Origin: Anaerovibrio sp. JC8
GTDB taxonomy: Bacteria; Bacillota; Negativicutes; Selenomonadales; Selenomonadaceae
Length of the DNA: 64,000 nucleotides
Direction: 5' to 3'
Assembly: GCF_002100115.1 (NCBI RefSeq)
Contig: NZ_ANBM01000010.1
Coordinates: forward strand, 16,783 to 80,782
Shown one piece after another: positions 21,967 through 50,301 of this stretch. Made by a program: the position numbers and the translations under genes. The notes beneath the pieces were generated by a model. The model ran no database searches and was not told the DNA's origin. It saw only the letters and a list, made by a program, of their open reading frames with translations. Numbering within the stretch: position 1 is the first letter of the stretch; the number at the start of each line of letters is the position of its first letter.

Positions 21967-22019
21967 AATATGACCTCGTTTAATAGCTATTTATTGGGGG
22001 CTGTATTGTTGGAAAAATT

Positions 22020-23450
22020 ATAGCATGATGTGGCAGTTCTTGCTATCAATTTATGGGTGGGATGTATGCCGGGTGGTGGGGCGGCGCTCTCTTTCCGGGT
22101 CTGTGTGCTGCCCCGTCGTCCGGCTGCGACGGGAGTGAAACGACATAGTCCCTTCAGGGAGTGGGGGCGACGCGAGCAAAGCGAGCTAGTACCCGAAGGG
22201 TAGGTCCCGAAGGGTAGGTCCCGAAGGGTATTCTGGGCGGAGGGCGGGGTAGACCCGTGAGGGATAGCTGGCACGAGTGGACATCTTACTTTCGATAAAT
22301 GTGGTTATCGGAACCATTGGCCCCCGGAGCATAGCCAGGCGTTCCGATAACCTCTCCGGCGTTTATCGGAAGTAAAATGGCCTGCCTTATGAGGTTGGAG
22401 GCTCCTTCCCAGATGCCAAAAACGGATGCCAAGAAGGTGGCTCCGGCCCATACTCATAGGCCCACACTTGGAGCTGGCACCAAGAAACATGACTACAATG
22501 TATCAAAAAAATGTGCTGAAAATTGGCTTAATTTTACTGTACAATTAGGTCATGTATAGCAAATTAAAAACTGTACAAAATGGTATTATGTGCAAAAATG
22601 TACAGCAGAAAACCCTATGTATTGTGGCATCAAATACTGGAATGTACAGAAGAATATAGGCTAACAGCAGGAAGTAAAAACCTTATACTATAAAGTCATG
22701 TATTGGAAGGCCTTGGTTCGTTCCCGGCTTCGGGGCCTCGTGGGGGCCCAGGGAAGCCGTACTTTATTGCGTGGCCATGCTCTGGGGATTTCCGCTTTAA
22801 ATGGCTTCTGCTGTGGCAGAAGCCGTCCTTCCGCGGAGGGTGAGGCTATGGCTTGCCATGGCCTCATCTTTCGCTACTCTCTGAGATATGGCTGGAACTT
22901 TTTTCCGGGGGGAGGATATAGCCCAGCTTTGATGGGATATATGCTACCCTCCGGGGCCGACACTTGGAGAAGTGGTTTTGGCAGTGCTGCCGCCCCAGAT
23001 AAAAAAGTGGTAGCTCTGCCTCTACTGGCCCTATAGTAGGCACTGGCCAAAATACCGACTGCTGTGTATGGGTTCTGCTTGCAGGTTCCATGCTCTGCTG
23101 TTCGGGTCATCACTTAGAGTCGGGGTAAGCGGTGACTGCTTGCAGTGACCGCAATACTAGCCCAGTAGTTGGCACTGGACCACCTTCCGGCGGCTGGGTA
23201 TGCTCCCAGCTTTCTTCAGATACTGTCAGGGCTTTTCATGGCATAGCCGGAATCCGTGATGTAGGCATGACAGGGAAAGACCTGGGGCCAATGCTGCTGG
23301 GGGTATACTCTGCCGTCCGGGGCACCTTCTCGAGTCGGTGTTTCAGACGCTGGAGGTGGCTGACCGCACGTATGGGAGGTCTGACACCGCAAGCGGCTCA
23401 CTTCAATCAAGGCACCCTAGTTTTTAAGAGTGTGGGTGGTCTCCTTTTAT
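22020..23450 (+). ncRNA. Large GC-rich structured non-coding RNA, copy 1 (GOLLD/ROOL-like in scale)
   Basis: About 1.4 kb has no credible gene on either strand but matches 50105-49205 on the other strand in scattered blocks: an AATTTATGGG start block followed by GCGCTCTCTTT; TTTCGATAA and CTTATGAG around paired CGATAA/TTATCG stems; CGCTTTAAATGGCTT with a stem whose two sides change together between copies (GGCTTCTGC/GCAGAAGCC here, GGCTTTTG/CAAAAGCC there); TACCCTCCGGGGCC; TGGGTTCTGCTTGCAGGTTCCAT; and CGGCTCACTTC near the end. Pattern and size are those of ornate RNAs of mobile elements. A 22488-22700 AT-rich segment, bounded by CATGACT/AGTCATG, looks inserted. Confidence 0.65.
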
Positions 23451-48145: not shown

Positions 48146-48249
48146 TTTCATCCTCCTAATTATAAAAATAGACGACTTTACTATTATAACAATTAAATAA
48201 ATTTTGTCTAGGACCTAATACTTATATTTAAAAATAATGTAATACTTTC

Positions 48250-48353
48250 CCATATTGATCGTATGTGTAAATGTAATATAAAATTACACACTTCTACTCA
48301 TTCTCTCCCCTGCCTGTTCCCCTTTCAAAAACAGGCAGGGCCTTTTTTTATTT
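48250..48353 (+). ncRNA. Operator-like palindrome plus hairpin RNA with C-rich loop
   Basis: TGTGTAA and TTACACA flank a TATAAAA -10-like box (about 48270-48296). The transcript would begin near 48290 and hold CCCTGCCTGT/ACAGGCAGGG with loop TCCCCTTTCAAAA and a seven-T tail. It resembles the C-rich-loop sRNAs at 19.5-20.7 kb in principle, though only one hairpin is present. Confidence 0.4.
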
Positions 48354-48442
48354 TTTGTAATACATCATTTCATTATCCGTAAGTATGGACATAAAAGATA
48401 AAACAAAACGGGCACAGCCCATAAAGAAGGGAGATAAATATT

Positions 48443-48637
48443 ATGAACAAGAAATATGAACTCAACGAAATGGAATTAAATCAGGTAGCCGGTGGCCGCC
48501 CACGCATTCGCCTTCATGGCCCACGCCGTAAGCCTTTCCAGATCATCCGTGATATTATTGATTTAGTAAAGGATATCACAAGCCCTAAGAAGGATACTCC
48601 ACAGCAGACTCCACAGGAGCCAAAGAAGGCTGCATAA
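48443..48637 (+). CDS. Double-glycine leader peptide (bacteriocin-like)
   Basis: The 64-aa peptide has a classic leader MNKKYELNEMELNQVAGG (18 aa) and a basic core (RPRIRLHGPRRKPFQII..., then KDITSPKKDTP). GG leaders are cut by C39-peptidase ABC exporters. The Arg/Pro-rich core resembles antimicrobial or signalling peptides. No exporter or immunity gene is nearby. GGGAG lies 10 bp before the ATG. Confidence 0.8.
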   Translation: MNKKYELNEMELNQVAGGRPRIRLHGPRRKPFQIIRDIIDLVKDITSPKKDTPQQTPQEPKKAA

Positions 48638-48739
48638 AAAATAACAGTCCTTTCTTCTAAGTGGATTTAGAGGAATTAATATATCGCCCATCTCCTTCTA
48701 TCTGCTTGTTTCTCCTCTCCAAGAATCAGGCAGAAGATA

Positions 48740-48778
48740 TAAATAGATCCCCTGGCTACAAAGTCAGGGGATTTCTAT
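48740..48778. terminator. Terminator after the first double-glycine peptide gene
   Basis: AATAGATCCCCTG pairs with CAGGGGATTTCTATT around a 10-nt loop. Confidence 0.65.
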
Positions 48779-48909
48779 TGCACTTCTTAAATCCAAAATA
48801 TAATAAATGTGTTATAAAAAATATGTATTATTAGTAATACTCTGAGTATTTAGTCGTATGTATAGGCAAGAAAAGAAAAACATAAACAACAAAGAAAGGG
48901 GTGCTGAAA

Positions 48910-49104
48910 ATGAAAAAGGCAGAGATGATGAACAAGATGGAACTGGACATCATGGCAATGGAGAATGTATCAGGTGGAACTGTTCCTCCTGAGATTCCAC
49001 CTGCTCTTGTTAACGAAACTGGCCCACTGGGCACCTGCGACCCGCCAAAAGGCACTGGCCCTCTCGGCAACGCAGTTGGTCCTGTGAATGATTGGCGCCG
49101 CTAA
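48910..49104 (+). CDS. Second double-glycine leader peptide
   Basis: The 64-aa peptide has a leader ending in MAMENVSGG (about residue 25) and a Pro/Gly-rich acidic core (TVPPEIPPALVNETGPLG, one Cys, TGPLGNAVGPVNDW). It lies beside the 48443 peptide, so a two-peptide system is possible. AAAGGG precedes ATG 48910. Upstream, CGTATGTATAGGCA (48855) resembles 6698-6711. The stop is followed by a worn yvrJ tail (GAAATCCGCAAGGAACAC). Confidence 0.75.
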   Translation: MKKAEMMNKMELDIMAMENVSGGTVPPEIPPALVNETGPLGTCDPPKGTGPLGNAVGPVNDWRR

Positions 49105-49170
49105 TCCTGTTGGCGAGGATGCCAAGGAGTTGGAAATCCGCAAGGAACACACGGAAGCAGACAGAAAATG

Positions 49171-49203
49171 AATACCCTGGCTAAAAAAAGCCAGGGTATT
49201 TCT
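49171..49203. terminator. Bidirectional terminator between peptide gene and large RNA
   Basis: AATACCCTGGCT pairs with AGCCAGGGTATT over a loop of seven A/T; T or A runs flank both sides. Confidence 0.8.
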
Positions 49204-49204
49204 A

Positions 49205-50105
49205 TTGGAAAGGGTATAAAGGAAGCCACCCACAACCGCCCCCTCTTATGGGCTTCCCGCCCCGGCCCCAGACCGTGGCTCCAGCTCCAACGATGGGCCA
49301 AAGCCACTTACTGGGTGCCACCGATGGAAGTGAGCCGTGAAAGCCGGGCGGCTTCCCATTCGTCCAGCCACCCAACTTTCCCGTCTGCCCTACTCGTAGG
49401 CTCTCTCCGAACAGTAGAGTATGGAACCTGCAAGCAGAACCCATACCCTACTGTCGGCATGTGGGCCAGTGCCAACTACCAGGCCAGTATCAGCGGTCAC
49501 TGTCCTGTCGCTCCCTTCCGCTCCGCTTCATCAGCAGCTTATTCTGCTTCTCTCCAGTCCGCGCACTCCAGCCACCGCTAAAACCACGACTATAAGAGAG
49601 GCCCCGGAGGGTATCACTACACCCCAGAGTGGCGTAGTCATACCCCCGTTTTTTATTTCTCATCTTCTCTAAGAGAGTAGCGGGCGCATACTGCCCCCGC
49701 GGTAGGTTGGCTTTTGTTACGGCAAAAGCCATTTTAAGCGGGAGGCGACTCTGGGGCTACTACTATGAGTATGGCAGGGGACCCTGATGGAGCATCCAGC
49801 CGTGTCACGCTCTTAAACCGACACTCCCCCTGTATGCTCTGGGTTTTGTCCCCAGCTCATAAGGCAGTCTGGTGAGCGTCCGATAAGTTCCTTTCGTCTA
49901 TCGGAAGTAAAACCAGACCCGCCAGGACCGCCACCCTCTTTTACTGTCCGATAGACAAACTTATCGAAAGCTGACCAGTCTTTCGTGCCCTCTCTCCCTC
50001 GCGGGACCCCACCCACCAGCCGGGGCCGCAGCTGCACACAGACATAAAAAGAGAGCGCAGCCGCACCCCCGGCATACGCCCCGCCCATAAATTAAATAAT
50101 ATAAT
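49205..50105 (-). ncRNA. Large GC-rich structured non-coding RNA, copy 2
   Basis: Read on the minus strand, about 900 nt match copy 1 (22020-23450) in the same block order: AATTTATGGGCGGGG, GCGCTCTCTTT, TTTCGATAA, CTTATGAG, CGCTTAAAATGGCTT with stem GGCTTTTG/CAAAAGCC, CGCTACTCTCTTAGAGA, TACCCTCCGGGGCC, TTGGCACTGG, GGGTTCTGCTTGCAGGTTCCAT, CGGCTCACTTC and GTGGGTGGCTTCC. Order of two blocks near the 3' half differs (TTGGCACTGG precedes the GGTTCTGC block here), so one copy is rearranged. All ORFs crossing it are on-off shadows without ribosome binding sites. Candidate class: ornate RNA such as GOLLD or ROOL, or a new one. Confidence 0.65.
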
Positions 50106-50115
50106 TTCTCCAAGC

Positions 50116-50229
50116 AAAAAGAGAGCCATTTCTGACTCTCTTACTTTTTTAGTTCCTCATTTATACGGCTGAGGTTCACCGACATTTCTTAAGACTCACT
50201 TAACGGTAGAGATTCACCGACTTTTTCTT
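50116..50229 (-). ncRNA. Putative small RNA with strong promoter, upstream of large RNA copy 2
   Basis: On the minus strand TTGACA (50264-50259), a 17-bp spacer and TATACT (50241-50236) form a near-consensus promoter. The transcript has two similar units (GTCGGTGAATCTCTACCGT and GTCGGTGAACCTCAGCCGT) and ends in AGAGAG/CTCTCT with five T. Either an independent sRNA or a leader with read-through into the large RNA. Confidence 0.6.
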
Positions 50230-50301
50230 GCTTCGAGTATAAACGGTATTTTTGATATTGTCAATTATGACAGCTAAGGACTACCAGAGCACCCCCTATC
50301 T

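What the first reader, a model, noticed from the sequence alone, without database searches (positions are those of the whole stretch)
22020..23450. Large ornate non-coding RNA present twice in the island (0.9 and 1.4 kb)
Two GC-rich gene-free regions, 22020-23450 (+) and 49205-50105 (-), share at least nine short conserved blocks in nearly the same order while the sequence between them is diverged. At least one stem (GGCTTCTGC/GCAGAAGCC against GGCTTTTG/CAAAAGCC) changes on both sides together, which shows selection on structure. Size and mobile-element context recall the GOLLD and ROOL classes, but I cannot match either from memory, so this may be a new class.
Basis: partly seen in the sequence, partly recalled or inferred. 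Interest (0 to 1): 0.95.

Follow-up and report, generated by a model that had tools for sequence, protein, structure and literature searches.

The report
Large modular folded RNA of Anaerovibrio
Eight of 16 genomes of one bacterial genus (likely Anaerovibrio, from the rumen) carry scattered copies of a stretch of about 0.9 to 1.4 kb with no conserved protein, whose pairing bases change together, so it is likely read out as a very large folded RNA; it matches no family in the Rfam library, is partly built from repeats of one stem-loop unit, and what it does is untested.

Summary
The regions at about 22050-23446 (+) and 49219-50092 (-) are two copies of one family. A model of its 3' domain finds none in 364 other genomes of the class. 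No Rfam family matches, even at E up to 10, beyond chance-level hits. ORFs inside are not conserved.

New anatomy: a 5' hairpin domain that also occurs alone; a long nested stem; a stem-loop module of about 140 nt, securely present once or twice per RNA (more with weak matches); a 3' domain. Ends are fixed and truncated copies are common.

Best reading: a new family of large structured ncRNA, likely acting as an RNA scaffold or assembly. It resembles GOLLD, ROOL and OLE in kind but is not a member of them by the Rfam test. A selfish mobile RNA element is the main rival. Expression and function are untested.

The parts
22050..23446 (+). Copy A of the element (A-type, about 1.4 kb)
   Evidence: Homology to copies in other genomes, e.g. 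86.8% over 1270 columns to L054; ends judged from aligned copies
49219..50092 (-). Copy B of the element (B-type, about 0.9 kb)
   Evidence: Homology; ends judged from aligned copies
22050..22138 (+). 5' hairpin domain of A
   Evidence: Model R2, 79.5 bits; pair counts
50004..50091 (-). 5' hairpin domain of B
   Evidence: Model R2, 102.4 bits; pair counts
22262..22395 (+). Long nested stem domain of A
   Evidence: Alignment A4, pair counts
49857..49992 (-). Long nested stem domain of B
   Evidence: Alignment A4, pair counts
22799..22829 (+).
   Evidence: Alignment A5, pair counts
49704..49734 (-).
   Evidence: Alignment A5, pair counts
22993..23132 (+). Module of about 140 nt in A (core copy)
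   Evidence: Model R3, 122.7 bits; a row of the model
23141..23347 (+). Second module of A, with a longer inner hairpin
   Evidence: Model R3, 62.8 bits; not a row of the model
22897..22982 (+). Possible further module of A (tentative)
   Evidence: Model R3, 24.6 bits; antisense self-matches reach 18.3 bits in A and 30.1 in B
49380..49520 (-). Module of about 140 nt in B (core copy)
   Evidence: Model R3, 144.2 bits; a row of the model
49577..49711 (-). Possible further module of B (tentative)
   Evidence: Model R3, 17.9 bits
23302..23420 (+). 3' domain of A
   Evidence: Model R1, 135.1 bits; pair counts
49311..49425 (-). 3' domain of B
   Evidence: Model R1, 99.7 bits; pair counts
22018..22030 (+). 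Upstream box TTATAGCATGATG of A
   Evidence: Box TTATANCATRATG at -35 to -41 of 8 of 22 five-prime ends
50236..50264 (-). Promoter-like site upstream of B (TTGACA, 17 nt, TATACT; 11 of 12)
   Evidence: 2 promoter-like sites found in the region, 0.8 expected from shuffles; a terminator-like hairpin at 50142-50119 lies between it and B

Best explanation
A and B are two copies of a multi-copy family of 0.9-1.4-kb elements with conserved base pairing that no Rfam family matches, and each is likely transcribed and likely works as the folded RNA itself. Shown: homology among copies, fixed ends, paired changes in several domains, no conserved reading frame, and a stem-loop module of about 140 nt that some copies carry twice. 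Inferred: short upstream sequences act as promoters of full copies. Inferred: the 5' hairpin and the 3' domain cap the molecule, and the modules offer repeated docking or self-association surfaces, so that the RNA would act as a scaffold or an RNA-only assembly in the manner of GOLLD, ROOL and OLE. Inferred: copies spread and decay with accessory islands, by duplication and recombination with breakpoints at the borders of RNA domains.
For: Homologous copies in 8 of 16 genomes of the genus. Paired changes: standard pairs in 91.7, 95.7, 95.7 and 94.1% of cells in four domains, against 24-52% when slid; 27, 32, 16 and 29 cells changed on both sides, reached by 0 of 500 shuffles each. Stable folds: B sense z -7.69, A 22690-23450 sense z -6.01. 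Frames not conserved, no Pfam match. Module: A 122.7 and 62.8 bits, two modules of more than 40 bits each in two copies of L046 and in L047, L048, L058, L060 and L061 and in L044. Fixed 5' and 3' ends. Conserved upstream box.
Against: No expression data. A sigma-70 scan of 22 upstream regions is mostly no better than shuffles. Two 5' ends have no candidate at all, and several follow directly on what look like terminators, where a promoter has no room. Copies are related, so shuffles overstate; the measure 'pairs changed on both sides' is reached by 82-249 of 500 shuffles and 'further pair types' by 99-500 of 500. B antisense also folds well (z -7.30). Weak module matches are no better than antisense self-matches. 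Half the genus lacks the element, so it is dispensable. The scaffold or assembly step rests on analogy only.
Confidence: 0.55

Rival explanations
1. A selfish mobile RNA element without a protein of its own, in the manner of ORF-less introns: the fold would serve its own insertion, preferably at T-runs behind terminators, and would leave truncated copies.
For: Several copies and as many fragments per genome, patchy in the genus. Of 22 five-prime ends, five (L045, L051, L053 minus, L062, L064) directly follow what I read by eye as a terminator hairpin and T-run. 5'-truncated 3' ends; solo 5' domains with a common break.
Against: No intron family matches. No RVT_1 domain in 4 of 8 carriers, among them the window's own genome. 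No clean empty site found in the two flank comparisons made. Copies with the shared upstream box move with their upstream sequence.
Confidence: 0.27
2. A DNA-level element: the strand folds as single-stranded DNA and serves recombination or transfer of island cassettes, with no functional transcript.
For: Breakpoints fall at domain borders; a lipoprotein-like gene lies between 5' domain and body in L044 and other DNA in L045; copies sit at borders of core and accessory DNA in the loci compared.
Against: G-U cells outnumber A-C cells 75 to 10 on the stated strand (biased since the helices were chosen on that strand); the sense strand folds better than the antisense; known sites of this kind are much shorter (recalled).
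Confidence: 0.08
3. A diverged member of GOLLD, ROOL or OLE that the Rfam models miss.
For: Size, elaborate folding, no protein partner recurring at most copies.
Against: No match up to E 10 with permissive filters; module architecture and multi-copy state not seen in the passages read on those classes; tRNA genes near only one locus type.
Confidence: 0.06
4. A decayed protein-coding gene.
For: ORFs of 91-146 aa exist in the two regions.
Against: Every A-type copy compared has stops inside the frames of A (6 of 6 and 5 of 5), 87 of 111 indels are out of frame, substitutions do not prefer third positions; no Pfam match for five ORFs.
Confidence: 0.02

Closest known systems
ROOL RNA (rumen-originating, ornate, large)
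   Same: Large structured RNA without ORF, found in rumen bacteria by name and origin, no known protein partner (PMC12286853, passages)
   Different: No Rfam match; here multi-copy in chromosomal islands of one genus, with tandem modules and solo ends; not in tRNA islands of phages
GOLLD RNA
   Same: Very large (over 800 nt), complex fold, better conserved 3' part (PMC12286853, passages)
   Different: No Rfam match; no phage, plasmid or viral-contig match in the searches made
OLE RNA
   Same: Large ornate bacterial RNA with covariation
   Different: No Rfam match; no recurring protein neighbour at most copies
Group II introns, ORF-less, group IIC or circularly permuted
   Same: Large folded RNA, several copies per genome, some behind terminators (the group IIC preference is recalled), may lack an ORF (PMC8637638, passages)
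   Different: No intron family match; no RVT_1 domain in the window's own genome

Membership tests
GOLLD / ROOL / OLE | Match to the family's covariance model | tested here: not met
   cmscan against 4227 Rfam families: at gathering thresholds only a tRNA in the window; up to E 10, 6 and 10 chance-level matches for A and B, none of them these families
GOLLD / ROOL | Encoded in phages or prophages, often near tRNA islands | tested here: not met
   One tRNA in the window, more than 20 kb from A; tRNA genes in 3 of 19 copy-bearing loci scanned, each a single tRNA-Leu at what is one orthologous locus; no phage or viral match in the searches made
GOLLD / ROOL / OLE | RNA-only homo-oligomer | not testable with these tools
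   Needs mass photometry or cryo-EM
Group II intron | Conserved intron core recognised by Rfam intron models | tested here: not met
Group II intron | Reverse transcriptase in cis or in trans | tested here: not met
   PF00078 in 7 of 16 genomes; absent from 4 of 8 carriers including the window's genome. G001, G003, G005 and G013 do have one
Group II intron (IIC) | Insertion directly behind terminators | tested here: inconclusive
   5 of 22 five-prime ends, read by eye; the defining preference is recalled
Large structured ncRNA (as a kind) | Covarying base pairs | tested here: met
   with the caveats given
Large structured ncRNA (as a kind) | Transcribed | not testable with these tools
   No expression data on hand; only promoter-like signals

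The most novel reading that the evidence does not exclude
A genus-specific giant RNA that grows by tandem duplication of one structural module, spreads through the genome as an RNA-encoded element without a protein of its own, and assembles into a repeated RNA architecture: a new class beside GOLLD, ROOL and OLE, caught while modules and copies are still being gained and lost.
Probability: 0.3. Interest if true: 0.9.

Novelty: new variant of a known kind. Interest (0 to 1): 0.74.

Why it matters
Few bacterial RNA classes reach this size, and the functions of the best known ones (GOLLD, ROOL, OLE) are open (PMC12286853, section 'Main'). Here one genus holds many young copies with different module numbers, solo end domains and decayed copies, so how a giant RNA is built and spreads can be followed step by step, and genomes with and without it can be compared directly.

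Tried and rejected
Rejected: GOLLD, ROOL, OLE, HEARO, group I and group II introns as Rfam models them (the 6 and 10 matches listed up to E 10 are chance-level, the best being SpF39 with 33.1 bits against a cut-off of 60, over the hairpin upstream of B). Rejected: a coding gene. Rejected as chance: the exact 20-mer in two of seven contigs (L037 betaproteobacterial, L039 clostridial), where models R1 and R2 find nothing. Rejected as chance: eight R3 matches of 19-25 bits outside the genus among 398 genomes of the phylum; five of the eight were re-scored, three alignments were shown, and those three skip the paired core. Rejected: 38 viral stretches brought in by two short patterns: R3 over all 38 gave at best 13.5 bits (E 0.066); R2 over 7 of the 38 gave one match of 19.2 bits (E 0.013, L137), which I did not follow.

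Led nowhere: blastn of B against phage and plasmid records (A was not tried); four viral patterns without a match. The order search covered the same 189 genomes as the family search. A sigma-70 scan of 22 upstream regions found no general promoter. Flank comparisons at L062 and L051 gave no clean empty site, and B's flank turned out to be a repeated gene region. Literature: searches joining Anaerovibrio with noncoding RNA or with repeat and intergenic, and one on rumen and new RNA classes, listed nothing on this element; I saw listings only. No protein homology search of the large database was made.

Full report
Where it is. Its genus is taken as Anaerovibrio by inference: an exact 20-mer of the element lies in five contigs named Anaerovibrio, whose lengths (42302, 22296, 5330, 18905, 15072) equal those of carrier contigs of genomes of the window's genus. 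Around B lie a type IV coupling protein, a Clp protease, an Hsp70 gene and a tyrosine integrase, so 'island' is fair.

The observation. A (about 22050-23446, +) and B (about 49219-50092, -) are homologous: the 21-mer they share has no chance match in 100 shuffles, and further blocks are colinear.

More copies. B as a query gives 11 matching pieces in its own genome, on contigs C6, C10, C12 and C23, and matches in 8 of 16 genomes of the genus. A covariance model of the 3' domain (R1, 17 rows) gives 20 matches, all in those 8 genomes, 4 in the window's genome and 6 in G005. It gives none in the other 173 genomes of the family nor in the other 364 of 380 genomes of the class; searches of this size use stricter filters that lose weak matches. 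The 5' hairpin model R2 matches 6 of 189 family genomes, all in the genus. Copies fall into subtypes that cut across genomes: A is 86.8% identical to L054, in another genome, over 1270 columns, but matches B only in short blocks.

Structure. Pair counts are (module, 12 rows, 14 pairs; long stem, 13 rows, 16 pairs; 5' hairpin, 14 rows, 17 pairs; 3' domain, 17 rows, 17 pairs). Standard pairs fill 91.7, 95.7, 95.7 and 94.1% of cells, against 24-52% in versions slid by one to three columns. Cells changed on both sides number 27, 32, 16 and 29, and 0 of 500 shuffles reach these. Against this: rows are related; the number of pairs with a change on both sides is reached by 89, 91, 249 and 82 of 500 shuffles, and the number of further pair types by 500, 500, 99 and 438; and the structures were derived from these sequences. 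I left the inner helix of the long stem out of the count because the subtypes are out of register there; in the script that showed this, many of its cells were unpaired.

Strand. Over the four structures there are 75 G-U cells and 10 A-C cells; the helices were chosen on this strand, which biases the ratio. B folds to -431.6 kcal/mol in the sense strand (z -7.69, 20 shuffles) and -338.3 in the antisense (z -7.30); A 22690-23450 to -341.3 (z -6.01) and -263.8 (z -3.23).

Modules. Model R3, built from 12 modules, finds in A the core module (122.7 bits, a row of the model), a second at 62.8 bits, and weak matches of 24.6 and 9.2 bits; in B the core module (144.2) and a weak one of 17.9. Antisense matches of the palindromic core reach 18.3 and 30.1 bits in the same calls, so the weak ones are tentative. 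Two modules of more than 40 bits are found in both copies of L046 and in L047, L048, L058, L060 and L061 and in L044, where they lie head to tail 133 nt apart. L054 and L059 show a second one by sequence pattern. L043, L062, L064 and L085 show one above chance level. So copies differ in module number, and the RNA seems to have grown by duplication of a stem-loop unit.

Ends. The 5' end is GGGYGGG behind a T-rich stretch; the 3' end is GGYYTCCTT or near it. In L045, L051, L053 (minus), L062 and L064 the 5' end follows directly on what I read by eye as a terminator hairpin and T-run. Of 22 five-prime domains looked at, eight (L049, L050, L051, L052, L057, L064, L086, L087) are not followed by the RNA body, and six of these stop just after the second G-tract; L049 resumes with the 3' domain, L086 runs off its contig after about 40 nt, L087 is a weak match (33.6 bits). 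L047 lacks the hairpin between the two G-tracts. A 209-aa lipoprotein-like gene in L044 and other DNA in L045 lie between 5' domain and body. Several 3' ends lack the rest (two in L046 and L054, others in L055, L056, L058, L060). This is a birth-and-death pattern with breakpoints at domain borders.

Upstream and flanks. L044, L049, L054 and L059 share the last 40-100 nt upstream; A, L046b and L050 share 419-481 nt, including a divergent GNAT gene, with no downstream similarity among the three reported. Both groups, and L052, have the box TTATANCATRATG at -35 to -41: 8 of 22 five-prime ends, against 11 occurrences in 639,440 bases (both strands of the window and 22 loci). These 8 are not independent. 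A sigma-70 scan gave mostly no more than shuffles; B has a promoter-like site further upstream with a terminator-like hairpin between. In the two flank comparisons made, L062 and L051, relatives match on one side only, so a precise insertion is not shown. The most widespread neighbour family, HTH-like, lies within 6 kb of 11 of 33 copies or fragments, at varied distances.

Not a protein. In six comparisons of A-type copies 87 of 111 indels are not multiples of three; the two ORFs of A meet earlier stops in every copy compared (6 of 6, 5 of 5); substitutions do not prefer third positions. Five ORFs of the two regions have no Pfam match.

Comparison with the known. Neither copy matches any of 4227 Rfam families beyond chance. 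On GOLLD, ROOL and OLE I read the abstract, the sections 'Main' and 'Biological relevance of homo-multimers' and passages of PMC12286853: large, covarying, assembling from RNA alone, GOLLD and ROOL often near tRNA islands of phages and prophages. On circularly permuted group II introns I saw passages of PMC8637638; of PMC2864571 one table passage. The group IIC preference for terminators is recalled; one search was a listing only. If the inference holds, the present family works like the ornate RNAs; by the tests made it is not a member of them.

How it most likely works. Shown: selection on pairing, modular build, fixed ends. Inferred: it is transcribed, its modules offer repeated contacts, and it acts as a scaffold or self-assembly. 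The mobile-element reading explains copy number and solo ends better, but lacks an intron core, a reverse transcriptase in half of the carriers and an empty site. Both readings may be partly true.

Noticed in passing
L044:337-966 (+): A 209-aa ORF with a lipoprotein-like start (by eye) sits between the 5' domain and the body of an RNA copy; Pfam gives no match above a cut-off.
   Followed up: partly
L050, L051, L057, L064, L086, L087: The 5' hairpin domain occurs alone, often between a T-run and an A-rich stretch of a neighbouring terminator-like hairpin (by eye), like a miniature element of its own.
   Followed up: partly
window 50004-50092 (-) and most 5' domains: GGGYGGG tracts on both sides of the 5' hairpin could form a four-stranded G structure with the hairpin in its loop; in L047 the hairpin is missing between the two tracts. 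Not tested.
   Followed up: no
L045:7099-7122, L060:7833-7856; variants in A, L044, L051, L059, L062: A small palindromic repeat (GCGACGCRARNGAAGYGAGCTAGT, then CCCGNAAGGG) is found in loops and ends of several RNA copies.
   Followed up: partly
   Followed up: no
window 48228-49190: Region beside the 3' end of B holds repeated small genes with double-glycine leader-like peptides (by eye) that recur in other genomes and twice in contig C5 of this one.
   Followed up: partly
window 50160-50240 (-): Between the promoter-like site and B are two near-copies of GTCGGTGAAYCTC...CCGT, each a possible hairpin, before a terminator-like hairpin (by eye).
   Followed up: no
L062:6333-6912: A stretch upstream of the L062 copy recurs on many short contigs of G002 and others, often at contig ends: a separate multi-copy repeat.
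   Followed up: no
L043:2707-2793, L061:3333-3419, L060:3569-3655: The locus shared by these three copies lies beside a tRNA-Leu (CAA) gene, possibly an island attachment site.
   Followed up: partly
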